64,000 nucleotides of DNA, from NCBI GenBank assembly GCA_024036415.1, contig JAMWET010002889.1, forward strand, positions 62,001 to 126,000. Reading direction: 5' to 3'. The position numbers and the translations under genes are program-made. Origin of the DNA: Prochilodus magdalenae (lineage: Eukaryota > Chordata > Actinopteri > Characiformes > Prochilodontidae). Below, piece by piece: positions 2,040 through 41,640 of the stretch. How positions within the stretch are numbered: position 1 is the first letter of the stretch; each line of letters opens with the position of its first letter. The notes beneath the pieces are model-generated. The model saw only the letters and a program-made list of their open reading frames with translations, was not told the DNA's origin and did no database searches.

Positions 2040-2109
2040 TTACAGTATAATGTGCTCCAGATTCTGTGTTTCATAAAGGCCTTTAGTGTAATATGTGTAA
2101 CTGGGTTTT

Positions 2110-2122
2110 CCAGTAGGGGGCA
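2110..2122 (+). promoter_or_regulatory. CTCF-like core motif
   Basis: CCAGTAGGGGGCA matches the vertebrate CTCF core consensus CCASYAGRKGGCR at every position. The duplicate at 22443-22455 also matches, with one permitted base change. Binding is inferred only. Confidence 0.4.
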
Positions 2123-4716
2123 GCGTTTGAGCAGTTCTGTCTTTGGCTTGTTGTGTGATGGAGCACCAACAGGTGGAGCAGAGAGCATTAGCGTTACTAA
2201 GACTGACTGTGGGATCTGTAGGGCTCCCAGTCACACCCATAGTACTACAGGGTTCATCTTTATAACTCATATCAGTACAGTGGAGGAATCTAGAACCCCC
2301 TTTATAAGCTTTATGTCTATTTGCTGGTTCTAGCTTCTCTGCTCTGAGTGGTGGGAGACTATTTCTATTATTTAGTGACCATGTATCATTCATTTTTCTC
2401 ACTGTACACGACTGTACAAAGACCCATAATGCCTTAGTTCTGACTACTGTCTGATTACAGTTGCTCTGGAGTGATCTTACTGTTATTATTCCCAACTGGA
2501 ACCAAAATATTTCTCACAGACACTTTATATGGTGTGGTATTTATTTACCATAAACCTCAAATTCCATTTTTACATGTTAATTTTCCAATTATTGTTTCTT
2601 TTAAACTGTCTGTTCAAGTAAATATGGTCCTTACTGTGTCAATAAGAGTAATATATGCAAGCAGTCTGTATTCTGATTGGCTACACCTTATTCAAAAACA
2701 TTTCCAGCATGAATGGGCGGAGCCAAACGGCTGTAAGCTGAACAGACAGATGTAGTGTGGGTAAATTAATTAAAGCTGATAATGCTAATAACTTGTAGTG
2801 AAGAACTGTGTGCTAAAATTATTCAGAAAGTAAAATGCCAAACAGAGGCATGTCCACTAATGGTCTCAGACTATTCGACCCCACTGCTGATTCTTGCTTT
2901 TGTATTTCACATTATACCTTCAGACTTCAGAACTGAGCTATTAAAGCTTGTTTAAAGCTACGTCATGTACAGATGCTTTTGTTTTATAAAGAAACTAATT
3001 CTCTCTTTGTTTAATCTATTAACACATCATGCAGGTCATTTGATCAGGTCTAGAAGTGTGTCTGTATGTGTGAGCACACTGCGGCCTGAATATTTTCCAA
3101 CCACAAAACTGACCCTCTGCTATTTTCACCTGCTTGCTGCACCAAACCACACGCCTGCACCTCAACACCTCATTTTCCATCAGCAGATATACAGATCCGC
3201 CCTGTTCACTGTTACCCTGATAATGACAGTTCATTGAAGGACATCATCTAAAATAACACCAGTATACAGTGTTTAGACTGTTAGCCAGCAATGCTATAAA
3301 GCAGAAGCCAAAGTATCATGACACCATGATGCTATCACCTCCTGTTTCCAGTTTTCGTTGTTTTTCACTTTTGACATAATTGAACACCTCCAGCCGTATG
3401 TTATAGTGTGTAAATTCCATAATGATGGACCATGAAAAATGCTCAGAAATTGCTTATAATAAAATTTCTTTCCATTAAGTTACATTTAAAGTTATGTTCA
3501 TCTACTCCTTCTCCTGTAAAGTTAGCATTTTGGAGAAATTGGCCCGACTGCACTTTTATATAACGTAAACAATGGGAAATCTGTAACATATTATAGAGGA
3601 CTTGGCTCTTAACAACAAAAATAACTATAATTATGTGAAACATATAAATTCATTTCAAATGATCATGTAAGATGATGCTTCAAGAGTGCATTTGTGCATA
3701 CACATCTGGCTTGGACATGTGCCAACCACCATAATAACCTATTATCTATCTATTATATTATTTTCTTGTATGGGTACAGGCCCACATGTACCTGGCCGGC
3801 CTAACACCGTATGTGTAGTGGTTCTGCTCAGTGCATAGAACCTACATGTCTATTAGTTTTCATCTGTATCTGATCAGTGATCATCAAACAGTATCAGATA
3901 CGTCCTTCATCTTCATTTCTGAAAGCAGTAGTCAAAATCAGCCGCAAGTGGCAACATGCGGGGTCCAAGCACTAATCAGGTCACTGAGGTCTATTCTGCT
4001 CAGCTGGGCCTTTTCACAGTCATAGCTAATCAAAAGTCCTACATATGTCATTTTATGAATAAGGCCCATCATTTTTTGTACAGACTGACCTTGTGTAGGG
4101 TTTTGTACTGATTGACCTTTTGACCTTGGTGTACTAAGCTGCACCCCTTGATCAAACAAGTCAAAAGCTGCATAATCAGTTTAAGTTTCTTGCAAAGTAA
4201 TTTTTTTTAAAATATCTTTAAATAATAAATAGATACATGTCATTTAACTGTAGGAACAATGGAAATACTAAGTACTATCAATACTAGACTGAGACTAGAC
4301 TAGACTATTAGATACTTGATAGACTCTAAAACCCTGTTGGGTTGTTTTTCTGCCCAAGTTCTGTGTTGGGTAGTTCTACTGGGTTGTTATTTACATTTTG
4401 GTTAATGGTCAGAATTATTTTCTTTACTCGGCAGTTCGGTTACTGCACTTCGTTGCCACTAGTGACCTATTCTTGTGGACAAATGGCAAAGGGTAGTCGA
4501 CTAATTGAAGCACCAATTCATGGTCTTATTAATTTTCAAAACAAATCTACCTAACACTTCTTAACATTTTAAATAGTGCATTAGTAAATATATTTTTATA
4601 TAGTACAAATAATAAAAACAAGCTGTGACAAGGTGATATTAAACTTTTGAACTCTGACTGTGGTATTATGTGCAGCCATACTAAGTCATTACTGGTATGC
4701 AGATGCACACATGATG

Positions 4717-4721
4717 TACAA

Positions 4722-4752
<31 letters not shown>

Positions 4753-4764
4753 TGTGTATGTGTG
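4717..4764. repeat. (GT)n microsatellite
   Basis: An imperfect GT run with interspersed TATG. A homologous GT tract lies at 27120-27170 in cassette copy B, so it predates the duplication. Confidence 0.9.
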
Positions 4765-5293
4765 TGGCTACATACTTGTGCCTGAGCGACTGTGTGTGTC
4801 TGTGTATATGCACTTTATGGTTTTCCAACCACAAAACTGACCTGAGGTTTTCATTAGAAAGCCTCTAGTTTCCTGACACTGATATAAAAACAAAAATACC
4901 TTTTTGTCTTTAAAGATAACATACCATTGAGTCTTTTGTTTCTATTTCACATTATGAATCAACACATAAAGCAAAATGGCAGTTATAAGTGACATTGGGG
5001 TGATTTCATATATAGGTCCTTTGGATCCAGTAATGAGCAAGTCATCCAAAACGGCGGATGAGGAAAAGCTCCATGAGAAATGGAATTTTTTTATTTATAT
5101 GGGAAGTATAAACACGACATTAACAATACAAAGGGCTAAAAGAGGACCAAAGGTTTTAGTAGTAGGTCTTTATAGTCTCAAGTACAAAACTATAAAAAAT
5201 AATAATTCTTAATAAAGCGTTGATGCAGCATGTAAGATGTTTTTCTTCCCAATTACCCCTCTGAAGAGATTATAATTCAACAAAACAGGACAA

Positions 5294-5331
5294 GCATCAA
5301 GGGGGGTGAATACCTTCGTAAGGCACTGTAA
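5294..5331. mobile_element. Residual terminus of a Tc1-like element
   Basis: The run 'ggggggtgaatacct' followed by 'aaggcactgta' resembles the right terminal repeat of a common teleost Tc1-like family. Only one end is recognisable. The same remnant sits at about 28715-28751 before IgV-2, so insertion and decay preceded the cassette duplication. Confidence 0.5.
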
Positions 5332-5402
5332 GCCCCTCCCACTGAATATAAGTATAGTTTAACAGGACAGTGAAACTTCCTCTTTGGTATATACGTGATG
5401 TG
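5331..5402 (+). promoter_or_regulatory. IgV-1 proximal promoter
   Basis: A C-rich box (gcccctccc) is followed by TATAAG at 5347-5352 and ACTTCCTCTTT at 5375-5385. The last reads AAAGAGGAAGT on the minus strand, a good PU.1/ETS motif. The start codon is about 50 bp after the TATA-like box, giving a very short 5' leader. IgV-2 keeps the same order and spacing. Myeloid or lymphoid expression is inferred from the ETS site. Confidence 0.5.
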
Positions 5403-8400
5403 ATGGCTCCCACCTCAGTGATGGCTCTGCTGCTCTGTGGGATCAGTAAGTGTTTCTAAATTTACTCTGTTATTAAACTCTATGTGTTTATGAGAAGCTG
5501 TGCTGTTCTCCACTGTACTTCACTGTAATGACCTGATCTAAACCTGACCTCTGTGATCTATAAAGCCAGGGCCTGCGCTCAGTCCAAACATTTTCCTGTC
5601 AGAACACTGATGAGTCTATATGATGATCAGTTGATCCCTGTACATGATGGCTCTGATAAATATCCAGATGAGCAGCTCAGATAACACTGTTACCCTGTAC
5701 CGTACTGTGTGTTCCAGGTGTACTGTCAGTGTGTGTGAGCTCTCAGGCTGGTTTAACTGTGGAAGCAGGACCTGGTGATAATGTCACTTTCTGGTGTGAC
5801 TACAGACTGACTCCTACATCTTATATTTTCTGGCTCAAACAAACTAATAACTCAGCTCCAGTTTTTATTGCATGTAGATATTATACAGCGTCCTCCTCAG
5901 TTAAACCCTGTTACTCCATCACTGGTAGTAACAGAGCAGTGATGGAGGTGAACTCTGTGAAATCCTCTCTCACTATAACTGCAGTTCAGGACTCTGATTC
6001 AGCACTCTACTACTGCTGTGTTCAGAAGGAAGAGCATATGACCTTCAGCACCACCACATACCTACAAGTCAGAGGTAACAACCTTCATCTCATTAGATAA
6101 ACACATAAACAGATAAAATATCAGTCATATGAAACTATAATGTGGAATATTAATGATATAATCTATAATAATATGTGATTCTGACGTTTGCTGTTGTTGT
6201 ATTGTTCAGAGAGGAGTCAAAAATCTCCAGAGAACGCTGACCAATCTAAAGGTTTGTGATGGAGCATATTTACTATGTACCAGCTCCTGCACATTATTAT
6301 ATTACTGTATGAACAGCAATATTTGTTGTTTTGAAAATGAATATTTGATGTTAAGGAGAGCTAGAATTAAGAGCATCAGTCTTTTGAAAATATCATTTTA
6401 ATATATGATAGTGTATGTATTAAATACAGTGCCCTCCATAATTATTGGCACCCCTGGTTAAGATGTGTTCTTTAGCTTCTTATAAATTTAGGTTTTTTTC
6501 CAAAATAATATAGGACCACGATGGAAAAATAGAGTAAAATCCAACCTTTAACTCAAGTGAATTTATTCAGTAGGATAAAAATCCCACATTAAGAAATAAT
6601 TGTTTAACATCAAATCATGTGTGCCACAATTATTAGCACCCCTGATGTTAATACTTTGTACAACCCCCTTTTGCCAACAAAACAGCACCTAATCTTCTCC
6701 TATAATGTTTTACAAGATGGGAGAATACAGAAAGAGGGATCTTTGACCATTCCTCTTTGCACATTCTCTCTAAATCATCCAGCGACCTGGGTCCTCTCCT
6801 CTGCACTCTCCTCTTCAGCTCACCCCACAGGTTTTCAGTGGGGTTGAGGTCTGGGGACTGAGATGGCCATGGGAGGAGCTTGATTCTGTGTGTGGTGAAC
6901 CATTTCTGTGTAGATTTGGCCATATGTTTAGGGTCATTATCTTGCTGAAAGACCCAGTGACGACCCATCTTCAGCTTTCGGGCAGAAGCCACCAGATTTT
7001 GTTTTAAAATGTCCTGGTATTTCAGAGCATTCATGATGCCATGCACCCTAACAAGGTTCCCAGGGCCTTTGGAAGAGAAACAGGCCCACAGCATCACTGA
7101 TCCTCCCCCGTATTTCACAGTGGGCATGAGGTGCTTTTCTGCATACTCAGCTCTTGTGTTACGCCAGACCCACTTAGAGCATTTGTTGCCAAAAAGCTCT
7201 ATCTTTGTTTCATCTGACCAAAGCACACGGTCCCAGTTGAAGTCCCAGTACCGCTTAGCAAACTCCAGACGTTTGCGTTTATGATTGTGAGTGAGAAAAG
7301 GTTTTTTCCGTGCATGCCTCCCAAACAGCTTGTTGGCATGTAGATAGCACCTGATGGTTGTTTTGGAGACTTTGTGACCCCAAGAAGCTACCATTTGTTG
7401 CAATTCTGTAACAGTGAGCTTTGGAGAACTTTTTATTTCTCTTATCATCCTCCTCACTGTGCGTGGTGGCGTCCTCGTCCAGGCTTGTTTACCACTGTTC
7501 CAGTTGTTTTAAACTTCTTAATAATTCCTCTGACAGTAGATATGGACAGGTGTAGGCGAGTGGTCCTGACTTGTGAAGGTCAACACACATCTGCCTTACT
7601 TGAATGGTATGTTCCTTTGTCTTTCCCATGTTGAAGAGAAATGGCCTCTGTGTCACGTCATATTTATACCCCAGGGAAACAGGAAGTTGTGAATTACTAA
7701 TTAAATGTTCCTACATACTCTGATCAACTTCATAAACTACTGTAGAAGTGACAGAAATACTTTAATTAAATTTATTTCCTAAGAATTGTTAGGGGTGCCA
7801 ATAATTGTGGAACAGGTGATTTTATGAAGAATAATTATTTCTTAGTCAGGGATTTTATTTTCCCCTTAAAATTCACTTGAGTTAAAGGTTGGATTTTACT
7901 CTTTTTTTCCATCGTGGTCCTATAATATTTTAAAAAAAAACTTATGTAAAATTGATGAGAAGCTAAAGAACACATCTTAACCAGGGGTGCCAATAATTAC
8001 GGAGGGCACTGTAAATAAATTAAATTAATTAATTTGAATATTTAAAAAAAAAAAAAATAAATTAGTGTTTGTAGAAGCTGGTTCTCCTCCCGATTTGTTA
8101 CTCCTGCTGTCTCTGGTGTGTGGAGGTGTGATTGTGGTTCTGCTCAATGGTCTTCTGTTCCTGCTCTTTATCATACTGAAGTACAGGAAACACCACAGAG
8201 AGGGTAAATATAGATTATTACTGATTATAGATAATAAATAATTTTATTATTATGTATGATTCTATCGTCTCTCCAAGTAGTTTAGTAGAAATAAGAGAAG
8301 TAAATCTGTTTCTAAAATGTTTAAATTAATGTTTAAATCTGTAAAAGCTCACGTATACACATAACATACTACAGTTTGAATACGTTAGAATATCAAAGTT

Positions 8401-9493
8401 TAATAAAATATGTAACTGTGTGAACCTGTATTCACAGATTCTGACCCTAAACTGAAAGGAGAGAATGAGGTAATTGAAAAACTCCATCAGTAGAATCATT
8501 GTATACAACGGGTATCTGAAAGTTAATGGATGCAGCAAATATGATGGAACTAAATGGCATAATTGTTCACATCAAGTTTTGTATTTTAATTAAATGTGCT
8601 GATTTTTATTCTTCTTGTGCAGTAGTTGCTTGTCAGTGTGTGTTGTAGTCACAAATGCTGGACAGAAAAGGTGTAATAAACTTGACTAAAAAAACAAATT
8701 TAAAAGACTTTTTAAAATATTCTTCATCTTTTGAATATATTTTATAATGAAATTTAAGAAATTATTATTATTACATATACAGGGGTTGGACAATAAAACT
8801 GAAACACCTGTCATTTTAGTGTGGGAGGTCTCATGGCTAAATTGGACCAGCCTGGTGGCCAATCTTCATTAACTGCACATTGCACCAGTAAGAGCAGAGT
8901 GTGAAGGTTCAGTTAGCAGGTAAGAGCACAGTTCTGCTCAAAATACTGCAATGCACACAGCATTATGGGTGACATACCAGAGTTCAAAAGAGGACAGACT
9001 GTTGGTGCACGTCTTGCTGGCGCGTCTGTGACCAAGACAGCAAGTCTTTGTGATGTATCAAGAGCCACGGTATCCAGGGTAATGTCAGCATACCACCAAG
9101 AAGGACGAACCTCCACCAGCATCACGTAGTGACCTGGCCACTATCCTGCAAGAAGAATGGCTTAAACTCCCTCTGACCACTGTGCAGGACGCAGTATATG
9201 TCATTCCCAAGACCAACTGACGCTGTATTGGCCGCAAAAGGAGGCCCTACACCATACTAATAAATGATGGTGGTCTAAAACCAGGTGCTTCAGTTTCATT
9301 GTCCAACCCCTGTATATCTTCAGTGTTTTATTTTTTATTTTTTGATTTATTGTGTGTATCTGCTCTACTGCAGGAGCCGGATAGTGACATGGTGAACTAC
9401 GCTGCTCTTTACTCCATCTCCAATAAGAAGTACAAGAGATTACGCAGACGTGTTGAAGCAGAGTATACACATATTATATATTCTCAATTGTAA
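5403..9493 (+). CDS. IgV-1: single V-set Ig receptor with ITIM-like tail
   Basis: Six exons by GT/AG rule and phase: 5403-5445, 5718-6074, 6210-6251, 8075-8203, 8438-8469, 9374-9493 (240 residues). Exon 1 starts a signal peptide (MAPTSVMALLLCGI). Exon 2 is one V-set domain with core Cys in FWCDY and DSALYYCC, Trp in FWLKQ, and an extra Cys pair (ACRYY, KPCYS). Exon 4 encodes a stalk and hydrophobic helix ending LKYRKHHRE. The tail has VNYAAL and IIYSQL, both matching the inhibitory pattern [VIL]xYxx[LV]. This is the plan of an inhibitory surface receptor, resembling novel immune-type or CD300-like receptors, but the J-like end (TFSTTTYLQV) lacks FGxG, so no family is assigned. Two Tc1-like elements lie in introns 3 and 5. 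The start lies 50 bp after a TATA-like box. Confidence 0.85.
5718..6074 (+). CDS. IgV-1 exon 2, V-set domain
   Basis: A 357-nt exon bounded by ttccag and a gtaac donor, symmetric phase 1. It encodes the end of the signal peptide and the whole V domain: GLTVEAGPGDNVTF, the Trp-containing C strand, SSLTITAVQDSDSALYYCC and an atypical G strand. An unpaired Cys follows the canonical second core Cys and is absent in IgV-2. Confidence 0.9.
6425..8013 (-). mobile_element. Tc1-like transposon in IgV-1 intron 3
   Basis: TA duplications at 6425-6426 and 8012-8013 flank inverted ends beginning CAGTGCCCTCCATAATTATT. The ends extend more than 45 bp and are nearly identical at the extremes. A second inverted segment inside (about 6510-6560 against 7880-7935) suggests the IR/DR arrangement. 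The element ends about 60 bp before IgV-1 exon 4. The corresponding IgV-2 intron has no copy, so it arrived after the cassette duplication. Confidence 0.95.
6648..7637 (-). pseudogene. Tc1-like transposase, catalytic domain open, N-terminus frameshifted
   Basis: An open frame of 269 codons (6648-7457) covers the DNA-binding end and entire DDE domain. It has LWSDETK (first Asp), VKYGGGSVMLWACFS, FQQDNDPKH (second Asp) and SPDLNPTENLWGELK (Glu), so the triad is intact. Family members are about 340 residues. The missing N-terminal helix-turn-helix lies upstream, starting near 7630 on the minus strand with MGKTKEHTIQVRQM, but in other frames with at least two frame changes. The full protein cannot be made from this copy, though the damage is light, indicating a young insertion. 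Confidence 0.9.
8075..8203 (+). CDS. IgV-1 exon 4, stalk and transmembrane helix
   Basis: A 129-nt exon, the same length as its IgV-2 counterpart. After AGSPPDL it encodes about 24 hydrophobic residues ending FLLFIILKYRKHHRE, the basic stretch marking the cytoplasmic side. No charged residue lies in the helix, so adaptor pairing through the membrane is not indicated. Confidence 0.88.
8778..9314 (+). mobile_element. Internally deleted Tc1-like element in IgV-1 intron 5
   Basis: TA-flanked inverted ends (CAGGGGTTGGACAATAAAAC at 8780 and its mirror ending 9312) bound only 533 bp. A short + strand frame at 8965-9129 (MGDIPEFKRGQTVGARLAGA, then RATVSRVMSAYHQEGRT) is the helix-turn-helix start of a Tc1 transposase. 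The DDE domain is missing. It ends about 60 bp before IgV-1 exon 6 and is absent from IgV-2. Confidence 0.93.
9374..9493 (+). CDS. IgV-1 exon 6, cytoplasmic tail
   Basis: The acceptor is ctactgcag at 9373 and the stop TAA at 9491-9493. It encodes a tail with VNYAAL near the start and IIYSQL at the extreme C-terminus, both ITIM-like, separated by a basic stretch (KKYKRLRRR). AEYTHI between them is close to, but not, an ITSM. SHP-phosphatase recruitment is inferred from the motifs. Confidence 0.82.
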   Translation, partial: EPDSDMVNYAALYSISNKKYKRLRRRVEAEYTHIIYSQL

Positions 9494-12826: not shown

Positions 12827-15225
12827 ATGGATCCCTGTACAGTGAAGTACCTGCTTCTCCTCTCAGCTTATATTCATCTAACATCAGCAGGTGAGTCTGA
12901 TCTCAGTCTTATATTAAATATAATCTGAGTGAACGGCTGTTTATCCTTCAAACCTTTACTCTACTGAAGTTCTGGATAAATTGACACTTAAAATGAAACG
13001 TGTTTAATAGTCTTTAGTTACTTACTGCATAAATCAACACAACTGTTTCATATTTAGAGCAGTAAACTCCTGATGCAGAAGCTAAACATTTGGGATGAAT
13101 TGTATTAATGAGAATTTAAATTAGTGAATTAATGTAACGTCAGTCGTTCATTGTTCTTAAAAACATTATTCTTATTATATAATTACTTTTTTATCATGAG
13201 TAGAGTGAATTTATTTGATTTTCAGAAGTTTATCTGCATTATGCAAAGTAAGCTAAAGAGATTTTTATCCTGCAGAGTGCTCAGTAGGTCTGACTCTAGT
13301 AGACAAGCTCTTATATTACTAAAAACCTTCATGTGTGAAAATCACCATTAATATGAGCATTATTATGACTGAACAATAGAGAAACTCTATTCTGTACAGG
13401 AGTTCAGGTTATTTATACTGGCTGCATTAATGCTGTAGAGCTACTGTAGATTAATTATATAATAACTATATAAGCACCTGATTAGGTGCTGATGTTCCTG
13501 CAGTCTGTGTTGTATTAACACTTAAATATTAATAACTGTTATTGTCATTTATTTGTGAAGCTCAGGCAGTACAGTTCAATGTGAGACATGAAGAGCATAC
13601 TTTATCACATAGTTCAATAATTTAAGTTAATGATATATGAGTCCAATGATTTTGTGTTTTTTCCCAATAAGGATAAGAACTGAGGTTAATATATAATCAC
13701 ATTTAATACAGATTGTCACAGAGATTATATGACTATAAGCACGTGTCAAATTTCATTCTTTATTTAGCATTTATTAGCATGCTAATTGTTGTGGTGGACT
13801 ATTTCATGCAAATACCCTCCAATCATGGAAACTGAATCAGATGAAATCATGATCTAATATAAAGACTGCATGCAGTTTCAGAGTGTGTCCGGTTATATAC
13901 TCCAGTCATTAAGTCTTCTCTTTTTCAGGCTCCCACTCTCTGCAGTACCTCCACACTGCAGTTACACGAGGAATAAACTTCCCAGAGTACACTGTGGTCG
14001 GTCTGGTGGATGGAGAGCAGTTTAGTTACTATGACAGTGACACTGAGAAGATGATTCCGAAGACGGAGTGGATGGAGAAGAGTGAGGGTGAAGAGTACTG
14101 GAACAGAGAGACAGAGAAAACACGGGGAACTCAGGAGACCTTCACAGCTTATATAAATACTCTGATGCAGCGCTTTAACCAGACTGGTGAGCATAAACAC
14201 ACTCTGAGCTTTACACCACTGAACACCAGATCTACAGTACATACGCCACATACATATTTATCAGTTTCTCAGACACATGCTCTGAGGAGATGCACATGCA
14301 CAGTGATGTTCTCAAAACTGAACACAGAATGAAACCGGGGAGGAAAATAATGGAAGAAAGTGTGATAGTAAGGAGAACAGCAGATAATATTTATTTATGT
14401 TTAATGTAAGAATGTCTTTATAGTGAACAAGTAGTAACACATTCCTAATCTAACAGACTCTGCTTATAACTTATATAACACACTGATCATATGATGGGTA
14501 AACTGGTATGAGCAGTGCATCTCTGCTGAATTTGAAAGTAAGCCTACTCTGGTGTGTAGTATGACAAAATCAGAGGTGAGTGGACAAACTGTAGAGGATG
14601 CATGATTAGAATAGCAGCTATACAGTAGTTAGTATGACAAGCTAAAGCTAAAATACTGTGGGATTATTAGCTCATCTTTTCTGAATATAATTTTAAAGCA
14701 CATTACTCTTTCAGTTTAAACTTTCAATTAGATAGCCAATCAATGAATGTTTTATATTAAACCAGTAATTCCCAGTATTTTATACCAGAAACTGAACTAA
14801 ATTATTTAATTTAATATCATACTCTGTGTACATTAAAATCTATAGTAAATGTTCCTGCAGCAGATGGTAGTGGAGGTGGTGTCACAGAAAAACATCTTTA
14901 ATAGCAGCTCTGGTAAACACCAGTATAGTTAACTATAGCAGCAGCTGACCAGCATGTAGGTCCACCTAGATACCAGGTCAGGAAACCTTCAGGAAAGCAG
15001 AGAGGAAGGAAGCTATCATTGAACTGTTCTGACCCAAACACAGTCCTGATCGTCCTGGCCTAGACATGGACTAGATAAAGATACTCTCAGGATATACACA
15101 CATACCACTGAACACTGTACTAGAGTCTGGAGAAGCAGGAGCTGATTAAGTTTAGGGTGAAGTTCAGTGTTCTGAGTGTATATGCTATATGTAGAGGGTT
15201 GAGTGGTGCAGTCATTGATGAACGC

Positions 15226-15257
<32 letters not shown>

Positions 15258-20699: not shown

Positions 20700-20748
<49 letters not shown>

Positions 20749-22369: not shown

Positions 22370-22640
22370 GTGCTCCAGGTTCTGTGTTGAGTTCTGTGAT
22401 TCATGTTAAAGGCCTTTAGTGTAATATGTGTATCTGGGTCTTCCAGTAGGTGGCAGTGTTTGAGTAGTTCTGTCTTTGGCTTGTTGTGTGATGGAGCACC
22501 AACAGGTGGAGCAGAGAGCATTACATTACTAAGGCTGACTGTGGGATCTGTAGGACTCCCAGTCACACCCATAGTACTACAGGGTTCATCTTTATAACTC
22601 ATATCAGTACAGTGGAGGAATCTAGAACCCCTTTATTAAA
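22370..22640. repeat. Cassette copy B, first homologous block
   Basis: Homologous to about 2045-2300, including 'ggcctttagtgtaatatgtg', the CTCF-like motif and 'agtactacagggttcatct'. It marks the start of the second cassette copy. Confidence 0.85.
22443..22455 (+). promoter_or_regulatory. CTCF-like core motif
   Basis: CCAGTAGGTGGCA fits CCASYAGRKGGCR at every position and is the duplicate of the site at 2110-2122, in the same orientation. Confidence 0.4.
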
Positions 22641-28158: not shown

Positions 28159-28750
28159 TCACAAACAGCCCCCTACTCCCTGTGCAGGTACCTGAACACT
28201 GTAGTATGCCTTAGCAGATTCCCTACAGCATCTGATACACTGATCACTGTGTAGTAGAGCTTACTAAGCTATGATTATATTAAAAGATTTAAAGTTCAAG
28301 ATTTAACGCCATTGTAAAATTATTTTAATAATGCTGTTGTAATATCATCACTGTCCAAAGACAAACAAGTATCTCCACAATGGTGATTTTACAGGAGAGG
28401 CCAAAAACCCAATATCATTTTACTGCAAGTCCACAGAACTGGACTTCCTACCGAGCGATTCTGGGTCATTTCTGACAGTCCATTCATCATGAAATGTTCA
28501 GACGGGTTGAACAGCAGCTGCTGTGTTCAAATGATCCCAGTTCCCAGTACATTAACTGGGTCTAGCCTGTCCGCCCTATAGAGAAAGTTCAGGCTACACT
28601 CCTGGCAATATACACCTATGGAATATACACTAACGTGTTCTGATTTTAAACATATACAAACATGTTTTATAAAAATCTATTTTAATTGCAGGTCGTAGAG
28701 CAACATAACAGGACAAAAACAGGGGGATGAACACTTTCGCAGGGGACCGT

Positions 28751-28822
28751 AAGCCCCGCCTACTCCTTATAAGTATAGTTTAACAGGATCGTAAAACTTC
28801 CTCTTTGGTATATACGTATGTG
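28751..28822 (+). promoter_or_regulatory. IgV-2 proximal promoter
   Basis: Same order as IgV-1: GC box (gccccgcc), TATAAG at 28768-28773, ACTTCCTCTTT (reverse PU.1/ETS motif) at 28796-28806, ATG at 28823. The motifs are kept while surrounding bases changed, which supports function. Confidence 0.5.
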
Positions 28823-31458
28823 ATGGCTCCTAGTTTGGTGACTGCTCTGCTGCTCTGTGGGATCAGTAAGTGTTCCTAAACTTATTAAATCTGATTAAAC
28901 ATTCTCAGAATAAACTGCAGGAGGAGGATTTGAGTTTATGAGAAGCTATCGCTAGAGTTTAATAACTCCTTATTAAATCATAACCCCTTTTAACTGATCC
29001 AGTAATGACCTGTAGGATGTCCAGCATGATCTTCCTGTGCATGACCGCACTGATGAATATCCACATGAGCAGCTCAGATAACCCTGTTACCCTGTACCGT
29101 ACTGTGTGTTCCAGGTGTACTGTCAGTGTGTGTGAGCTCTCAGGCTGGTTTAACTGTGGAAGCAGGACCTGGGGATAATGTCACTCTCTGGTGTGAACAC
29201 GGTCTGATTAAATCAGATTATTTATTCTGGTTTAAACACACCAATAACTCAGCACCAGTTTATATGGCGTGCAAATTCCACTCATTGGAAGCATCAGCTA
29301 AACCCTGTTACTTCATGACTGGTAGTCCCAGAGCAGTGATGGAGGTGAACTCTGTGAACTCCTCTCTCACTATAACTGCAGTTCAGGACTCTGATTCAGG
29401 ACTCTACTACTGCAGCCGTATGACCGGAAAACTCATGATCTTCAGCCCCACCACATACCTACATATCAGAGGTAACGACCTTCATCTCATTAGATAAACA
29501 CAAAGACAGCAAACAATACAATAAACAACCAAATATGATATTATAATATAAACTATATTAATAAGTGATTCCTCTGTTTGTGGATGTTTTCTTTTCAGAA
29601 CAGATCTCCTCTGAAAACTCTGGAGACACATCTGAAGGTATCGTATTTGCTGTATCTACATCACACATTAAAAGTTTAGACCTTGATCTTACAGTCGTAC
29701 ACTGAACAGCTCCACCTGCTGAGAGTCTGAACCAGTCCATATCCTGATCCACCACATCTACTCCTGATGTACACAGTATGGTACTCCTCCATATCTCCAC
29801 CTCTAATATATATTTAGTGGTGTAAAAACTTTGATCTCTTTTTCTGCACAGTGTAAAAGCTCTAGCTCTCCTTTCAGCTTAGTGAATATTCATGATGGAC
29901 CGACCAATAGAATCGCTCCAAACCTGCTTAGTAATAAACCTTGTTCTATCAGCTCCACTGCAGGGTAAGGAAGCTGCTCCATCCTCCTGTACAGCTCCAC
30001 TCTGGAGGGTTTTAAGGTGGACTGGATAATTCCATTCTGGAAGGTTTTAAGGTGGACTGGATAATTCAATTCTGGAAGGTTTTAAGGTGGACTGGATAAT
30101 TCCATGAGGGCTAATTTATAGCTTAGTGTCTTCAATTTTATTCTACAGTGATGCTTTACAATACACATAAGGAGAACCTGCTATGAGGAGCCGTCTCTAA
30201 CATTTTGACTGGTGGAGTACACTGTTATGAGGCTTTATTATATTTAGAACAGTCTGCATCATAGTGTATTAATAGAGTTTATCGTTTTACAGTCTTTGTT
30301 TTTGTGATGATTGATATTTGAGGTGTAGGAAATGAAGAGCAACTGCCTTTTAAATATCATTTATCATACCGAATGTATTCAGTGGATACACGGGTATAGA
30401 GAAAATTACATCTTTAGTTAAATCTGAAAATTTTAATAAAAAAAAAAAAAATAATAAAATAAAATAATATATATATATATATATATATATTTCTGGTGTT
30501 TGTAGAAGCTGGTTCTCCTCCTGATGTGTTCTTCATGCTGACTCTGGTGTGTGGAGCTGCGATTGTGGTTCTGCTCAGTGTTCTTCTGTTCCTGCTGTTT
30601 ATCATACTGAAGTACAGACAACACCACAGAGAGGGTAAATACAGATTATTACTGATTTATAAAGGTCTATATAGCTTATTACTGATTTATAAAGGTAAAT
30701 ATAGCTTCTTTCTGATTATAGGCAATAACTAATCTCATATTTCTATTTTTTTCTCTTATAATAACTCTAGAAAAAACAGTTTTCTGTTCCTACATTTTTA
30801 TTATTTTTTAAAAATGTATTTAAGAAATTCCACATAATGTACTGAAGTTTGTAAACATTCTACATATGCCTGAAATATGTAACGATATGTATGTGCTTCC
30901 ACAGGTACTAACTCTACACTGAAAAGAGAGAATAAGGTCATTTTAAATTTACTCTTAAAACATGAAAACAATCTGAACACATTAAAACTGTACCATGTTT
31001 ATTTACTGATGTCTCAAATGTGATGAAACTAAACTGTATACATTTATCACACATTTTCTAATTTAATATGCTGATTGATTTTCTCTTATAGTTTCATGTG
31101 AGAGACTAAACGTTGTTTAAAATATTCTACACCAATTTTGCAAATGTACGTTTAGTAAATCCCCTATATTGACTAAAGAATCAAAAGAAAGAAAGACAGG
31201 AGTTTTAGGCTTATCTTTAAATGTAAAATTATTACTCAAGTTAGATGATGCCTGCAGTAGTCTGTATGGGAGGGAGGATGTTTATGTGATCTGTTTGTGT
31301 GTTTCTGCCTCTAACAGCAGCGAGCCGGACGCGCGGAGATGGTGAACTACGGTCTGCTCCACATCATTTACAATGTAAAAGACAGAGATCAACTCACATC
31401 TGACGTAGTAGAGATTAGCAGATGGACTACAGCATGTTGTATGTATTCCTCTGCCTAG
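28823..31458 (+). CDS. IgV-2: single V-set Ig receptor with ITIM-like tail
   Basis: Paralogue of IgV-1. Six exons: 28823-28865, 29115-29471, 29599-29637, 30506-30634, 30905-30936, 31321-31458 (245 residues). Signal peptide MAPSLVTALLLCGI precedes one V-set domain with core Cys in LWCEH and DSGLYYCS and the same extra Cys pair (ACKFH, KPCYF). The stalk is Ser/Glu-rich and the helix ends FLLFIILKYRQHHRE. The tail keeps one ITIM-like motif, VNYGLL. After HIIYN it diverges from IgV-1, and the second tyrosine motif is lost, so the C-terminal part is unsure. Exon sizes of the V, TM and fifth exons equal those of IgV-1. A role as an inhibitory leukocyte receptor is inferred from architecture. The ATG matches that of IgV-1 in position and downstream phase. 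Confidence 0.83.
29115..29471 (+). CDS. IgV-2 exon 2, V-set domain
   Basis: A 357-nt exon, same length as IgV-1. Changes concentrate in the CDR1-like region (HGLIKSDY versus YRLTPTSY), the region around the extra Cys pair, and CDR3 (RMTGKLM versus VQKEEHM). The framework SSLTITAVQDSDS is identical. Confidence 0.9.
30001..30105. repeat. 35-bp tandem repeat in IgV-2 intron 3
   Basis: Three copies of a unit containing 'ggttttaaggtggactggat'. Confidence 0.9.
30467..30491. repeat. (AT)n tract
   Basis: A short AT run just before the acceptor of the IgV-2 transmembrane exon. Confidence 0.9.
31321..31458 (+). CDS. IgV-2 exon 6, cytoplasmic tail
   Basis: The acceptor is aacagcag (31320, or 31317 in the same frame) and the stop TAG at 31456-31458. 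EMVNYGLLHIIYN aligns with DMVNYAALYSISN of IgV-1. Beyond that the sequences part, probably through a small indel. The one clear ITIM-like motif is VNYGLL. Confidence 0.65.
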   Translation, partial: RAGRAEMVNYGLLHIIYNVKDRDQLTSDVVEISRWTTACCMYSSA

Positions 31459-34985: not shown

Positions 34986-35244
34986 CTGAACTCTGCATAT
35001 CCAATATGAAAACATTGAGTTCTACTATACTACAGTGCTGCACATTTGCCACTCTCATTTTGTACACAGATAGAATACGAGAGAAGGAGGCCATACATTC
35101 CCAGTCAAATGGCAGAGCGTGTTCAGTCCTATTGTTTTTCCCTGTTAACACAACGCAGAGGGTGTCGGGGTGCAGTCTCACACACTCATGCCCAACTCTA
35201 CTACACCTACAGTTTAAAGGGAGTCTGTTTATTTCTCCTTCTAG

Positions 35245-35505
35245 TCTCCCACTCTCTACAGTACTTCTACACTGCAGTTACACCAGGATTAAACTTCCCA
35301 GAGTTCACTGCTGTCGGTCTGGTGGATGGAGAGCAGTTTATGTACTATGACAGTAACACCAGGAAGGTGATTCCCAAAACCGAGTGGATGGAGAAGACTG
35401 TGGGTGAAGATTACTGGAATGATGGGACACAGACTTTGCAGGGAACTCAGGAGGTCTACAAAGTTAATGTGGCTACTATAATGCAGCGCTTCAATCAGAC
35501 TACAG
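35245..35505 (+). CDS. MHC-2 exon 2, alpha1 domain
   Basis: A 261-nt exon between cttctag and gtggg. It encodes TEWMEKTVGEDYWN and IMQRFNQTTG, with Y7, Y59, R84 and the NQT glycosylation site. Confidence 0.94.
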
Positions 35506-38500
35506 GTGGGTATAAACACGCTCAGCTTTAAACACTGATCACCGGATCTACATGAACACCTTTCTTTCATCTGTTTCTGAGACACATGTTCTGAAAGCTA
35601 TGAATAAGAAATTTCATAACTACACACAGATTTAGATTCAGGCTGCCGAAGCACAATCAAACACTTCAGCATCATAGGAAACATCTCAATGAATTTGCAT
35701 GTACAGGCAGCTGAACACGCATACAGTGAATTATACTGTACAGCACACAGTGTGCTTCAATTGCATAACAGCTCGCGTGTGTGTATATATATAATGCTCT
35801 GGACAGATTCATTTTTATTTTACATTTATTTAAGCTAGATTTATTATACACAGTGCTGTAATGACTCGTATCTCTGTTCTGAGGTTGATGAAATGTAAAC
35901 CTGTGGATGAATACATTTCAGTTACTACTTTTGATGATGAAGACTAAATATCTGGTAAGGATGATGATAATTTTAAGTTAATAATTAAAAAGTATGTAAT
36001 GTAAGGACGTTATACTGAATATGTTTCTCAATCTAGCATTTCCTAAGTGCTAATAATTAATACAAAATACTGATCATATAATGGGTCGGGCGTATGAGCA
36101 GTGCATCTCTAGAGTAAAAAATGAAACCTTCATTAGAGTTTAACATGAAAAAGGTTGATGGTTGCTACTTAGTTTTATTCCAGAAACTAAAGAAATTTGA
36201 CATTTTCATACTGTGTGTACATTAAAATCTATATTAATGCTCCTGTAGCAGACAGTAGTGGAGGTGGTGTCACAGAAAGACATCTCTAACAGCAGCTCTG
36301 GTAAATGCTAATACAGTTATAGCAGCAGAGGACTGGCATATAGGTCCACATGAATACTGAATCAGGCATATAACTAAACACTGTACTACAGTATGGAGCA
36401 TCTACACAAGCCACTGAACACCATACTACAGTATGGAGAATCTGTACTTCATACTGTAGTAGTAAGACCCTGAATCATGCACTGATTGAGTTCAAGTGTA
36501 GTGTACCCTGTATGTGAAGTATAGAATGGTGCAGCCAATAATGAACAGAGACCTGAACTGACCTCACTGTGTGTGTGTGTGTGTGTCTGCAGGAATTCAC
36601 ACATTGCAGAGAATGTACGGCTGTGAGCTCAATGGGGATGGAACTCCGACAGGACACAGGCAGTACGGTTATGATGGAGAAGACTTCCTCAGTCTGGATC
36701 TGAACACTCTCACCTGGACTGCAGCTAACGCTAAGGCTGTTATAACCAAACAGAAGTGGGAGCGCCAAGGTGAAGTTGCTATCGGGAAGGCCTACCTGGA
36801 GAATGAATGTATCGACTGGTTAGAGAAGTATGTGGGATACGGTAGATCCACTCTGGAGAGGAAAGGTACAGTGATCTGATCTGTTACTGGAACTGCAGCT
36901 CTGGTTAAATGAACCTAAATTCATAGCAACGATTTAAGCCAGTGGAATTGCAGTGTCATGCCGACATTAAGCTTATAAACTTATAATAATAAACAATGTA
37001 ACCTGTAATGTAGTACACTTCCTAAGATATGTTTTATAGAAGCTTAACGTTACTGTTATATAAGATCTAACATAAGCTGGATGAACAAAGCACCCCAAAA
37101 CTCTGCATGTTACCAGAACTGTACTTCTGACTCAATCCACTCTAGATCTTATCATAGCAGACAAGCATATATAGAGTGACTGGTGAGGAGGATCTCAAAA
37201 CCAACCAGATACCTGCTAAATGTTGGTGGTTGGTGTGGCTCAGCAGATAACACCGCTACCCACCAGAGAGCCAACACCATGTGGGAAACAGGGCTTTAAA
37301 TCCCAGTCTAGATGCTGGGCTACACCAGTAAGAGTCCTTGGACAAGAGTCCTAACACTGCCCCAGCCTACCTGTAAAATGAATGACCTTGTAAGTCGCTC
37401 TGGAATGTAAATGTCATGCATATTGACCTTGGTGTGATCAGTAATGAGCTGTTTACAAAAAAAAATCTAAATATTAACTTAAGAAATGTATTTAAAGGTA
37501 CTAATTTGCCCCTATACAGCCGTACCTAAAACATCTTATAGCCCCACCTAAAGAATCATAGAACTGAAAATGTATCACTTCAGTTTTATTATCTGTGTAT
37601 GTGCTCCATGTTTATGATAGTATCTAATATAATGCATGTTTAATTGTTTGTAAAGTACTGAATGGCTTTGTATCTTCTCATATTATGGACATTCTGTATC
37701 CAGAATGGTTCAACATCTTCAACGCTGCAAAAGGAAAACTGAACTTTCTTAATTCCATTTTTTTTCTCTCTCTCCCCCCCCAGTTCCTCCTCAGGTCTCT
37801 CTGTTCCAGAAGGACACTTCTTCTCCAGTGGTGTGTCATGCTACAGGGTTCTACCCCAAACCAGTGATGATCTCCTGGAAGAAGAATGGAGAGGATCTGA
37901 ATGAAGGTGTGGAGCTCAGAGAGACGCTACCCAACCAGGATAGGACCTTCCAGAGGAGGAGTGTTCTGACCGTCTCACCTGAGGAGCTGGACAGGAACAA
38001 GAAGTACACATGTGTGCTTCAGCATTGTGGTTTGCAGAAGGAGATGGTGTTACAGGTGTCTGATCGTAGAGTCCTGACAGGTAGGATTTCCCCCCCCCCC
38101 CCCATGTAGGAAATGAAACTGTACATTAATGTCAACATTTTATTTCTCTCTGTCACATTATATATATATAATTTTTATTTTGTGAAATAATAGATCCTGG
38201 TGTCATGTGTGTTTCAGGTGGAGGGTCAGTTGGCATGACTGTTGGGGCAGTTGTGGCTGGTCTCCTGCTTGCCCTCATTGTCTGTATGGGATTGTTCTTG
38301 TGGAAGAAGCAGAGGATGAAGGAGAAGATGAAGTCTGGTAGGTACAGAGAGATGTACATTTTAAACTAGATTTCTCTCATCTCTCCTACACACAGTTCTC
38401 CATACCACATCTCTTACACACATTCATAAGACCACAGTGTTTATTCAGTAATATGGATATTGTACGTTATTATAGAGGGTGTTCTCCGTATAAACTGAGA

Positions 38501-38780
38501 AGATGAAAAGATGACTTGGTAAAAGTCTGAACGTAGAATGTAGGCTGTTTTACGTACAATACATAATTCCATAATGTGGAGCTGTATGTAATGTACACAG
38601 TCAGGGGAGAATGATAATCACTCATCTCTCTTTCAGATTACAAACCTGTTCAGAGCAGCTCCGGTTCAGGTAACCCAGCCCTCCTGAAGTTTCTCTTCTA
38701 TAACAGTCAGAGTATATGATATGATCTCTCAGATTTAATTCTCATATATTTATTTGTTTTTAGGCCACAGTTCTGAATGA
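35245..38780 (+). CDS. MHC-2: MHC class I heavy chain, U-lineage-like, leader not found
   Basis: Six exons: 35245-35505, 36593-36865, 37784-38080, 38218-38337, 38637-38669, 38764-38780, all phase 1, about 333 mature residues, open throughout. Alpha1 begins SHSLQYFYTAV. Alpha2 has MYGCEL and NECIDWL, with T143, K146, W147, Y159, W167 and Y171 equivalents, so the peptide-anchoring set is fuller than in MHC-1. Alpha3 has VVCHATGFYP and YTCVLQH plus an odd extra Cys (HCGLQ). The helix exon is longer, with a basic KKQRMKEKMK end. The first codon joins to TC instead of GC, so mature residue 1 is not Gly. No convincing signal-peptide exon is seen, leaving it uncertain whether the gene is expressed, uses a new leader, or lost its 5' end. 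A SINE sits in the alpha2-alpha3 intron. It is the cassette B partner of IgV-2. Confidence 0.88.
36593..36865 (+). CDS. MHC-2 exon 3, alpha2 domain
   Basis: A 273-nt exon. It encodes HTLQRMYGCELNGDG, YGYDGEDFLSLDLNT, AVITKQKWERQG and AYLENECIDWLEKYVGYGR. The acceptor follows a (GT)n tract. Confidence 0.95.
37224..37416 (+). mobile_element. tRNA-derived SINE, degraded
   Basis: A-box-like 'tggtgtggctcagcag' near 37229, degenerate B box 'ggctttaaatccc' near 37290, then the tail 'cttgtaagtcgctctgga'. The same family as the SINE at 51941, but the B box has lost ggttcgaa. Lies in the MHC-2 alpha2-alpha3 intron. Confidence 0.8.
37784..38080 (+). CDS. MHC-2 exon 4, alpha3 Ig domain
   Basis: A 297-nt C1-set exon. 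It encodes PPQVSLFQKDTSSPVVCHAT, WKKNGEDLNEGVELRETLP and KKYTCVLQHCGLQ. One codon longer than MHC-1, with an unpaired Cys near the domain end. Confidence 0.95.
38218..38337 (+). CDS. MHC-2 exon 5, transmembrane segment
   Basis: A 120-nt exon, 18 nt longer than in the sister genes. The extra codons give an extended basic cytoplasmic start (WKKQRMKEKMKS). Exons 6 and 7 add a short tail ending GHSSE. Confidence 0.9.
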
Positions 38781-41640
38781 AGCTCATCGAAGATGAATTA
38801 AACCTGACTGTGGGATCAGTATTACACGGTTCTTTATGAACTATGCACTTTCTGGAACCAGGTTTAATCCTAGGCACTGAGGCTGAACTGAGAGATTAGA
38901 CATCTGGATTTTTCTTGGATCCCATTGCTGGCTTTATGGCCTGCTGTATTTCTGTTCCAGATGGTTTTGTTTCTCAGAAGTGTCTACAGGGGGACACTAG
39001 TGAGGATACAGCAGAGAGTAAAAATAAAAGCCATGGATATATTTTATTAAACACTTCACATGTTAATGAGATATTTATTTATTAATGTGCCAATAACAGT
39101 CATGTGAATAAGCTGAGCAAGCTTGTCCCCAGAGTTCTCCACCAAGGAATGTTCTGTTTGTTGTAGAGTGACTGTGAGAGACACTGTAGAAATACAAGTG
39201 TCATCAAATACAGTGTTAGCAGATAAAGATAAAGCCAAAGCACTTCCAAAGTCTGTATCCTGAGATTACTCAGCTGTGAGCGTGCGCCGTGGTTATGACT
39301 TGATACAGATCAAAGCTTAACTGCCCATTGTTACGTTTCTAATCATTTCCTACATCCCAATAAATGCAGTATTTTTATTTGTTTTGAATAAAAAGTCCAG
39401 AAAGCACCAGGACAGAAATGATGGGTTGTGGCCTGTGTGAAGAAACGCTGTGTTCAGATTAAAGTTAGTTTCTAATGTGTCGGTGTTCTTATCTGGCTTG
39501 CTCTCCTGTTGTTCAGTCAGCATCATTGTACCACTGGGAAAAGCCCAATCCACCCGGTTCCACTCAGTCAGACAACTGTACCACCACTGTAACCTCCTAT
39601 GATAATAATGAGCCACTACATTAAACAAGTGTTATTAAACAGGTATGTACGTGTGAGTTTGTGAGATTGCATACACATACATCATTATATATACATATAT
39701 GTATGAACACACACACACACACACACACAGGTCAGTTTGGTCGGTATGATGAATAAGCTCTTAACAAATTAACTTAGCTAGAGAGCAGTACAAGCCTCCA
39801 GACCCTCAAAGCCTCTCCTGGGGGTGGGAACTTTTTCACTGCTCACCACTTTACATTTCTAAATAAAAAAAAAATATAAAAATGTATTAATTAATTAAAT
39901 AATTAAGTGCTCCAGGAACAGAAATGAAAGTAAGACGAGTTGTACTGTTTGGGTTCTATTGGGTTCTAGTAACACTGTATTTAAAGCTGGTTTAAATGGT
40001 TCTAATGTGCCAGTTTGTCCAACTTGTTGTGAACTACTACAGTCATCCTTAATGGACCCCTCTGAAAAATCTTGGACAGCACTCAAACTTGAAACAACCC
40101 AATTTCAGTTAGATAATAAATGAAAATTATTAAAATGTAAATGAGATGAAATACAGCCTAAACAACTGGACATGTGTTATTATTTTAATTTAGCAGGTAG
40201 ATAAATCTTCGTATCATCACTGTACAAAGAATAATAAGTATTTCTAAAATGTTAACTTTACAGGACAGGACAAAAACCTGATTTAACTTCAGTGTAAGTC
40301 AATGGAGTTTTTACCAAGCAGTTTTGCGTTGTTTCTGTTGGTATATAGTCTGTAATGTTCTGGAGGTCAGTCTGTGCAGTTAGGCAGTCTGTGGTCAGCT
40401 TGTAGGAGACTGAACTGAGCATAAACTGCGTTACTGGTCAGATGCTTGTGGCAGATGAGCATGAGGTGTGGAGGAAGTGAGGTGTCTGTGTTCGTGTTCC
40501 TGATATAATGCCCAGTTTGTGTGGTTTAGTGGTTTTGTATATCAGTAAAATATCTCTTTACTGTAAAAGGTGACCTGTGTAATAGTAGGTTGCCAGATTG
40601 TGTCCATTCCAAGCTACAACAGCCATAATTGTCACGGTAAGGCACTGTGGAGAGGACAGTGCAGGGACACAGGGCTGGCTAAACGAGTCTGTATTTATGA
40701 TTTTCTTTTTGGATTATTGTTATGGATGAAGCTTTCTCTTCTTGATTTGAGCAGAGGTGGGGAATAAGCTTGATCACAGTAATGATCGAACCCCTGAGCG
40801 TAGTGTGAGAAACCTGTGCTCTACTGCGCCACCCGAGAGCACAGGTAACGAAGGGAACTACACCCTGACAACAAAGGATGCAAAATAAAAGGAAGGTCTT
40901 CAGAAAAATTAAAAAACAAAACAAGTCTCTTAGAATAAAATATTCTTTACCATCCTCCTTCACCACTCAAAATTTTATTTTTCAGTGCTGGATTTACTTT
41001 CTCCCAGCTCAGAAATTAATTCTCTCTTTTAGCCTGTCTGTCCGTCCGTCCGTCTGTCTCAACACTGGCCGACCTTTACGGTGCATTACCATTAGTTTTT
41101 TTTCCAAGTAGGTGCGTCTTCTATAGAGACGTGTTAAACAGTAAAGGTAAATACCTGTACTATAAGCTACACGCTATTAGCAGTGTTAGCGTAGCGTTTA
41201 GCTCTGTGTAGGTATTTAGTTCATCTGCTGGGGAGTCTAACAGACACCTGCTGCTTTTCGTTCACTTTCCTTTCTCTTTCTAGCAGGCTGCGTGTAAGGT
41301 GAGACTCAGCACAGAGTCATGTTTATGGTGAAGGGCGTGTCAGAGCATGAAAACAGCTCGGCCCTGAGGGCTTTTTCCAGAGTAGGATTTTCTGGTTAGC
41401 TTGCTGTACAGAACAGAGAAGAGCTGAAGGACAGTCCTATAGCATATCTTATGGTATACAGCTTACTGAGACGCCCTGCTCTGTGAAACAGGCCCCTGTT
41501 CACTGTAGAGCTGTTCTCACCTGGACTAATGTGAACTGATGTGCAGTTTGTACTGTTTTACTCAGTGTAAAGATCTATACATCCAAAGCACATGTGGAGT
41601 TCAGCAGTGCAGGGCAAAATTACATTAAGCACTGGAGTAA
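38781..41640. other. MHC-2 3' flank and intergenic DNA
   Basis: About 39075-39330 matches the MHC-1 3' flank (cassette end). A (CA)n run lies at 39708-39730. About 39930-39985 shares a block with 62285-62360, and 40440-40590 shares one with 63480-63630, showing dispersed repeats on either side of MHC-3. No gene. Confidence 0.55.
39023..39028 (+). terminator. Poly(A) signal of MHC-2
   Basis: AATAAA about 240 bases after the MHC-2 stop codon. Confidence 0.5.

What the first reader, a model, noticed from the sequence alone, without database searches (positions are those of the whole stretch)
2040..39340. Tandemly duplicated cassette pairing an ITIM-type IgV receptor with an MHC class I gene
Seen: ordered homologous blocks run upstream block - IgV - MHC-I - 3' flank twice (about 2040-21750 and 22370-39340) on the same strand. 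The two IgV genes share exon sizes, phases, promoter motifs and tail motif. Known: class I molecules are ligands of inhibitory receptors in mammals, and genetically linked receptor-ligand pairs can co-evolve (for example Nkrp1-Clr). Inference: this could be a linked receptor-ligand or self-recognition module copied as a unit.
Basis: partly seen in the sequence, partly recalled or inferred. Interest (0 to 1): 0.85.

Follow-up and report, generated by a model that had tools for sequence, protein, structure and literature searches.

The report
Repeated fish receptor plus MHC-I cassette
In a South American river fish, a gene for a probable 'off-switch' immune receptor and a gene for an MHC class I molecule sit side by side and have been copied together many times, which suggests (but does not prove) that the receptor reads the MHC molecule next door.

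Summary
The window (inferred to be Prochilodus magdalenae) has two collinear same-strand blocks, 2062-21712 and 22392-39343. Each carries a one-V-domain ITIM receptor gene, a class I gene and matching flanks. A third class I gene (49322-57706) has no receptor.

The unit recurs. 46 of 50 strong receptor hits, on 19 of 22 contigs, share a contig with class I; 33 of 41 have the next class I downstream on the same strand. The 5' flank has 11 copies, all on such contigs. Receptor nearest neighbours match those of the cassette's alpha1 exon in 12 of 17 (1.6 expected). But 81 of 132 class I sites lie on 39 contigs without a strong receptor hit.

The receptor is a NITR12-type novel immune-type receptor. 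The MHC is U-lineage-like; the three window genes keep eight peptide-anchor residues.

Both families share a contig in 19 of 23 chromosome-size contigs from characins, catfishes and electric fishes (hand count).

Binding is untested and dN/dS shows no arms race; hitch-hiking is the main rival. Nearest precedent: zebrafish DICP genes linked to class I.

The parts
2062..2305 (+). 5' flank block of cassette 1 (11 matches found in the genome, all on IgV+MHC contigs)
3046..3253 (+). upstream conserved block of cassette 1
5278..5464 (+). promoter (TATAAGTATAGTTTAACAGGA) and exon 1 block, IgV1
5403..9493 (+). IgV1 gene (NITR12-type receptor, 240 aa): exons 5403-5445, 5718-6074, 6210-6251, 8075-8203, 8438-8469, 9374-9493; ITIMs VNYAAL and IIYSQL
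6425..8013 (-). Tc1/mariner element with 0.22-kb terminal inverted repeats, inserted in IgV1 intron 3
12827..12890 (+). leader exon of MHC-I M1 (MDPCTVKYLLLLSAYIHLTSA)
13929..21109 (+). MHC class I M1: alpha1 13929-14186, alpha2 15261-15530, alpha3 20140-20433, TM 20551-20652, tail exons 20943-20975 and 21066-21109
16936..19830 (+). LINE remnant (endonuclease/reverse transcriptase frames, read by eye) in the M1 alpha2-alpha3 intron
21403..21712 (+). 3' flank block of cassette 1 (besides itself only its partner at 39081-39343 was found in the genome)
22392..22636 (+). 5' flank block of cassette 2
26304..26513 (+). upstream conserved block of cassette 2
28701..28884 (+). promoter and exon 1 block, IgV2
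28823..31458 (+). IgV2 gene (245 aa): exons 28823-28865, 29115-29471, 29599-29637, 30506-30634, 30905-30936, 31321-31458; one ITIM VNYGLL
35245..38780 (+). MHC class I M2: alpha1 35245-35505, alpha2 36593-36865, alpha3 37784-38080, TM 38218-38337, tail 38637-38669 and 38764-38780; no leader exon found
39081..39343 (+). 3' flank block of cassette 2
49322..57706 (+). MHC class I M3 without an IgV partner: leader 49322-49382, alpha1 50278-50538, alpha2 56524-56799, alpha3 57043-57330, TM 57434-57535, tail 57683-57706 (later tail exons not modelled)

Best explanation
The window holds two copies of a duplicating unit that pairs an inhibitory NITR12-type receptor gene with a U-lineage-like MHC class I gene. 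Shown: the unit, its flanks, its usual orientation, its many genomic copies and its co-inheritance. Inferred: the V domain binds class I alpha1/alpha2 of this family on other cells, the tail ITIMs recruit SHP-type phosphatases, and NK-like or other lymphoid cells are thereby restrained from attacking self, a missing-self system. Linkage would keep receptor and ligand repertoires growing together. The most likely form is family-level recognition of U class I, not strict one-to-one pairing.
For: Collinear blocks beyond the exons. 46 of 50 IgV hits on 19 of 22 contigs with MHC-I alpha2 (contig-level hypergeometric p 2e-39). 33 of 41 with the next alpha2 downstream on the same strand. Adjacent IgV->MHC same-strand pairs 27 against 18.0 in label shuffles, p 0.0002. 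5' flank: 11 of 11 matches on such contigs. Nearest-neighbour agreement IgV/alpha1 12 of 17 (1.6 expected) and IgV/alpha2 9 of 21 (2.2 expected). IgV nearest neighbours share MHC anchor class in 15 of 17 (8.0 expected, p 0.004). Both window IgV genes intact with ITIMs. NITR kinship. MHC best matches solved class I 5h5z, 356 bits against 249 for the next. All 8 anchors in the three window genes. Linkage in other otophysan fish.
Against: No binding, expression or cell data. dN/dS below 1 for IgV (0.55), its CDR-like loops (0.58) and alpha1/alpha2 (0.52/0.55), so no arms-race signature by pairwise counts. Mantel IgV-alpha2 weak (r 0.185, p 0.067, n 21) and absent in the 12 core cassettes. Agreement with alpha3 not significant (3 of 8, 1.9 expected). 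Only 27 of 51 alpha2 on these contigs directly follow a same-strand IgV, and 81 of 132 alpha2 sites are on 39 contigs with no strong IgV hit; M3 has none. The upstream alpha2 neighbour is on the same strand almost as often (23 of 30) as the downstream one (33 of 41). 11 of 50 V exons are broken or partial (counted). Co-inheritance is expected from proximity alone.
Confidence: 0.45

Rival explanations
1. Hitch-hiking: an IgV gene happened to lie next to a class I gene in an ancestor, and class I birth-and-death copied both. The receptor binds something else (lipid, viral or other cell-surface ligand).
For: Co-inheritance is strongest with alpha1, the MHC domain nearest the IgV gene, and falls off through alpha2 to alpha3, as linkage with recombination alone would give. 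dN/dS below 1. M3 and many class I genes lack a partner.
Against: Linkage is kept over three receptor subfamilies and in other otophysan fishes, though the orientation is not kept in the third subfamily (C2672, C47). 39 of 50 V exons stay open over nearly full length (counted) and dN/dS is below 1, so the receptor itself appears to be maintained.
Confidence: 0.4
2. Strict pairing: each IgV recognises mainly its own cassette's class I molecule, a cis-encoded self-recognition module.
For: IgV nearest neighbours share MHC anchor class in 15 of 17; cassette subtypes (for example C3114_82k, C2063, C6534_0k) match in both genes.
Against: Expected from co-duplication alone; W2 has an IgV in the clade whose other members have MHC with L84/I143 or I143, but its MHC keeps all anchors; IgV-alpha2 Mantel is near zero in the core set.
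Confidence: 0.1
3. The pair is largely decaying: most copies are pseudogenes or assembly duplicates.
For: 11 of 50 V exons broken or partial (counted); no leader found for M2; draft assembly of 7790 contigs; some copies 97-99% alike could be haplotypes.
Against: Both window IgV genes and M1 are intact in the exons modelled; 39 of 50 V exons open; dN/dS below 1.
Confidence: 0.05

Closest known systems
Novel immune-type receptors (NITRs), especially channel catfish NITR12a (A4UU48)
   Same: One V domain, J-like TxLxV end, TM, ITIM/itim tail; nests in the same family tree; NITR10/11 are among the best PDB matches
   Different: Medaka and zebrafish NITR clusters lie on chromosomes 10/18/21 and 7/14, and the passages I saw mention no class I neighbour (PMC2442602, passages); here 46 of 50 strong hits share a contig with class I
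Zebrafish DICP genes linked to MHC class I (Rodriguez-Nunez et al. 2016; only its title seen, in a reference list; paper not held)
   Same: Multigene Ig receptor family (with ITIM-type members, recalled) linked to class I genes
   Different: Different receptor family as far as tested (no DICP-named hit among those listed); I do not recall an ordered receptor-MHC cassette there
Nkrp1-Clr (rodent NKC) and the chicken MHC lectin pair
   Same: Receptor and ligand, or candidate ligand, genetically linked (PMC1193534, PMC5002281, passages)
   Different: C-type lectins, not IgV and MHC-I; for Nkrp1-Clr binding is known (recalled; the title of Iizuka 2003 was seen in a reference list), here it is not
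Teleost MHC class I U lineage
   Same: Sequence, exon layout, peptide-anchor residues
   Different: Carries a receptor gene upstream in a repeated unit; some cassette members lost anchors (L84/I143 or L147)

Membership tests
NITR | N-terminal V-type Ig domain in a type I transmembrane protein | tested here: met
   Pfam V-set 6.5e-11 and 2.5e-8; signal and TM exons; AF2 V fold, pLDDT 82.5
NITR | J or J-like motif (FGxG or TxLx[VLI]; PMC2442602) | tested here: met
   TYLQV / TYLHI at the V-domain end; the FGxG part is absent
NITR | Cytoplasmic ITIM/itim or charged TM residue | tested here: met
   VNYAAL + IIYSQL; VNYGLL
NITR | Sequence kinship with named NITRs | tested here: met
   NITR12a and 12b among profile hits; NITR12a inside the tree, node 93/99; NITR11 third and NITR10 near the top, below two antibody constructs; NITR10 ranks 1-4. 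The names are the depositors'.
NITR | Second I-type domain with six cysteines | tested here: not met
   Only one Ig exon; the paper gives one-V-domain NITRs as one of the two major forms, so this is not required
DICP | D1/D2 sequence similarity to zebrafish DICPs | tested here: inconclusive
   No DICP-named hit among those listed; most hits carry no family name; no DICP sequence at hand
MHC class I U lineage | alpha1-alpha2-alpha3 class I architecture | tested here: met
   Pfam MHC_I and C1-set on the exons given; exon models
MHC class I U lineage | Closest to U-lineage molecules | tested here: met
   For M3: best solved match 5h5z, 356 bits (that it is grass carp UAA is recalled); catfish class I alpha O62894 63%. 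No lineage tree was built.
MHC class I U lineage | Peptide-end anchors Y7 Y59 R84 T143 K146 W147 Y159 Y171 (set and numbering recalled) | tested here: met
   All 8 in M1, M2, M3; 9 of 18 genes with both domains read keep all 8
Linked receptor-ligand pair (Nkrp1-Clr type) | Genetic linkage of the two genes | tested here: met
Linked receptor-ligand pair (Nkrp1-Clr type) | Direct binding of the products | not testable with these tools
   no binding assay; none found in the passages seen
Linked receptor-ligand pair (Nkrp1-Clr type) | Matched evolution beyond linkage | tested here: inconclusive
   neighbour agreement high but dN/dS < 1 and Mantel weak

The most novel reading that the evidence does not exclude
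The long-unknown ligands of NITRs include the U-lineage class I molecules encoded next to them. Otophysan fishes would then carry dozens of self-contained missing-self cassettes in which receptor subtype and class I groove subtype are inherited together.
Probability: 0.3. Interest if true: 0.9.

Novelty: new variant of a known kind. Interest (0 to 1): 0.7.

Why it matters
Fish NK-type receptors lack an established MHC ligand as far as I saw: a 2019 paper says the interplay of class I lineages and NK receptors in fish 'remains elusive' (PMC6797598, passage), and the 2008 medaka NITR paper speaks of ongoing efforts to find NITR ligands (PMC2442602, passage). This cassette names concrete pairs to test, in a group that includes farmed fish (catfish, tambaqui). 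If true it would be another linked receptor-class I system, built from IgV receptors and classical-like MHC.

Tried and rejected
First guesses by eye, dropped: L lineage for the MHC (it is U-like and catfish matches) and DICP for the receptor (named profile hits are NITR12). 'CD226-like' is an automatic name in Colossoma records; no support for it was sought. Dispersed repeat as the cause of the flank identity: rejected, 11 and 2 genomic matches only. Diversifying selection: looked for by pairwise counts, not seen. IgV remnant before M3: none convincing in 39000-50300. Leader for M2: none found. Literature searches for NITR-class I linkage listed no such report; the library lacks most subscription papers and listings were capped. 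Catfish NITR12a against the own genome did not complete. tRNA: none; Rfam: one LINE 3' element.
Full report
SOURCE. The window is G000:C2866:62001-126000 of a 1.18-Gb assembly in 7790 contigs. The protein search returns a 99% match (67% of the query) from a Prochilodus magdalenae contig of 163,971 bases, the length of C2866; other contig lengths agree. So the species is P. magdalenae (inference from matching lengths). A 1.2-Gb draft is published (PMC9893009, start of abstract in search listing).

OBSERVATION. Self-comparison shows ordered same-strand blocks between 2062-21712 and 22392-39343, with upstream, intron and 3' flank blocks besides the exons. Both IgV genes splice to intact proteins of 240 and 245 aa with equal exon order and phases. 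M1 has a leader (12827-12890, donor GTGAGT); none was found for M2. IgV1 carries two ITIMs, IgV2 one. A third class I gene (M3) has a clear leader but no convincing IgV trace in 39000-50300.

GENOME-WIDE. The IgV2 V domain finds 140 matches (150 of 903 candidates scored). Alpha2 sites: 117 (150 of 294 candidates scored; its alpha1 rows left out) plus 15 (150 of 171 scored; 13 weak rows, E 1.6e-8 or weaker, left out) make 132 sites on 58 contigs. 46 of 50 IgV hits, on 19 of 22 contigs, share a contig with alpha2; C724, C3953 and C6535 have IgV without alpha2. The hypergeometric value of 2e-39 treats contigs as equal and duplicates as independent, so it only shows that chance is excluded.

ORDER. 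Of 41 IgV with an alpha2 downstream on the contig, 33 have it on the same strand (median 10.4 kb); the 8 exceptions are on C2307 (39 kb), C2672 (3), C47 (24 kb) and C7313 (3); 5 have none downstream. The upstream neighbour is on the same strand in 23 of 30. On the 19 contigs (97 features, 78 adjacencies) there are 27 adjacent IgV->MHC same-strand pairs (18.0 in label shuffles, p 0.0002), 56 alternations (45.1, p 0.004) and 62 same-strand adjacencies (39.1 in strand shuffles, p 0.0002); such shuffles ignore that neighbours arose by duplication. Own contig C2866: I8 M21 I38 M45 I60 I67 M77 I91 M98 M118 I137 M146, all plus. The 5' flank block has 11 matches, all on C2866, C3735, C2307, C3114 and C6698. 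By coordinates 9 of 11 lie 2-8 kb upstream of an IgV hit (one of these partial); the one at C2866:139971 lies downstream of its nearest IgV, and the one at C3735:61309 has no mapped IgV after it.

SHARED HISTORY. For 21 of the 33 same-strand pairs I had both genes (loci and the window); 20 are direct neighbours, and in C3735_1k a partial IgV lies between. Rows under 70 residues were dropped per exon. Nearest-neighbour agreement between IgV and alpha1 is 12 of 17 (1.6 expected, p 2e-4), with alpha2 9 of 21 (2.2, p 8e-4), with alpha3 3 of 8 (1.9, p 0.35); alpha1 with alpha2 of the same gene gives 9 of 17 (2.0 expected). Ties within 0.012 counted as agreement. Mantel: IgV-alpha1 r 0.24, p 0.006 (n 17); IgV-alpha2 r 0.185, p 0.067 (n 21), or 0.275, p 0.014 on the 17 with both domains; IgV-alpha3 r 0.34, p 0.04 (n 8). 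In the 12 core cassettes alpha1 remains (0.30, p 0.015) and alpha2 vanishes (-0.11, p 0.71). Neighbour agreement falls with distance from the IgV gene, which fits plain linkage with recombination.

MHC GROOVE. M1-M3 keep Y7, Y59, R84, T143, K146, W147, Y159, Y171; of the 18 genes with both domains read, 9 keep all eight. Losses come mainly in classes: L84+I143 (C2866_38k, C2307_70k, C2307_91k, C6698_39k) and L147 (C3114_82k, C2063, C6534_0k, C4538_88k); C5050 has F59. The IgV nearest neighbour has the same class (all anchors or not) in 15 of 17 (8.0 expected, p 0.004); close copies are not independent. W2 is an exception by tree. The anchor set and numbering are recalled from mammalian class I with R84 for fish.

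RECEPTOR KIND. The profile search returns catfish NITR12a and Clarias 'immune-type receptor 12a/12b'. In a 59-row tree catfish NITR12a groups with other catfish rows, P. magdalenae C2307_17k and C752_77k and two serrasalmid rows (93/99); a gymnotiform, Astyanax and P. magdalenae group (C2672, C47, C4146, C7180) is another subfamily (100/99); the window genes fall in a characiform group whose base is weakly supported (87/86). Each of the three has P. magdalenae members on class I contigs. AF2 of the IgV1 V domain (pLDDT 82.5) has NITR10 as Foldseek ranks 1-4 and NITR11 at 21 and 45, among many antibody domains of close score. Two further nearly invariant cysteines (C52, C64 of the domain) may form an extra disulphide (inference).

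RELATIVES. Colossoma: IgV P0002 and MHC P0077 on a 14,825-base contig; IgV P0147/P0174 and MHC P0052 on 69,825 bases. Counted by hand from the listed rows, the IgV-matching entries of Acnodon (4 of 4), Metynnis (8 of 8) and Serrasalmus (6 of 6) lie inside the tag range of the listed class I entries or within 22 tag steps of one. Some public gene models join IgV and MHC parts (P0016, P0017 in Prochilodus; P0184, P0185 in Metynnis), which I read as annotation fusions of neighbours. Of 23 chromosome-size otophysan contigs with an IgV hit, counted by hand, 19 also carry a class I hit among the best 120 of 2081; not Neoarius, Tachysurus fulvidraco 18.7 Mb or Clarias 29.6 Mb; Pygocentrus could not be judged. 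Some of the 23 may be alternative assemblies of one chromosome (Tachysurus vachellii, Clarias, Silurus), and same chromosome is not adjacency. Outside otophysans the listed hits are Alosa and Scleropages, with no class I link seen in these capped lists.

SELECTION. Pairwise dN/dS (ratio of means) for pairs with dS 0.01-0.6: IgV 0.55 (297 pairs, 8 with dN>dS), CDR-like 0.58 against framework 0.49, alpha1 0.52 (231 pairs, 8), alpha2 0.55 (490, 10), alpha3 0.51 (65, 1). 15 of the 22 highest-entropy V sites lie in the CDR-like stretches that I defined. No evidence for an arms race by this crude test.

VERDICT. The cassette is real, repeated and probably old; the receptor is an inhibitory NITR12-type molecule. 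That its ligand is the linked class I is the most attractive reading but rests on linkage and analogy.

Noticed in passing
L020:2062-3354 (C2866 about 38.6-39.9 kb), L012, L022, L029: A 51-bp tandem array (at least 25 copies in L020, cut by the locus end) whose unit holds the splice acceptor and the first part of the IgV transmembrane exon, open in frame (EAGSPPDVLLVLTLVFV repeated). It could give many alternative acceptors or a long hydrophobic stalk.
   Followed up: partly
window 22713-24923, 46311-47018, 52177-54089, 54280-55394: Large minisatellites of 29-, 72-, 52- and 72-bp units, the last two inside the M3 alpha1-alpha2 intron; the 52-bp and the last array give long frames that look spurious.
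   Followed up: no
window 52100-52153: UnaL2 LINE 3' element by Rfam, next to the 52-bp array.
   Followed up: no
window 336-1218 (-) and about 8780-9300 (+): Fragments that look like further Tc1-type transposon remnants (by eye).
   Followed up: no
G000 contigs C369, C439, C3851, C1799, C394, C233, C47: Short V-like matches with nearly equal scores (38-39% over residues 52-115) recur on class I contigs: perhaps another linked Ig gene.
   Followed up: no
G000 genome: Class I is strongly expanded: at least 132 alpha2 sites on 58 contigs, against 42 MHC-I genes or fragments listed for cavefish (PMC4364491, passage); sites are not genes, and draft haplotypes may inflate the number.
   Followed up: partly
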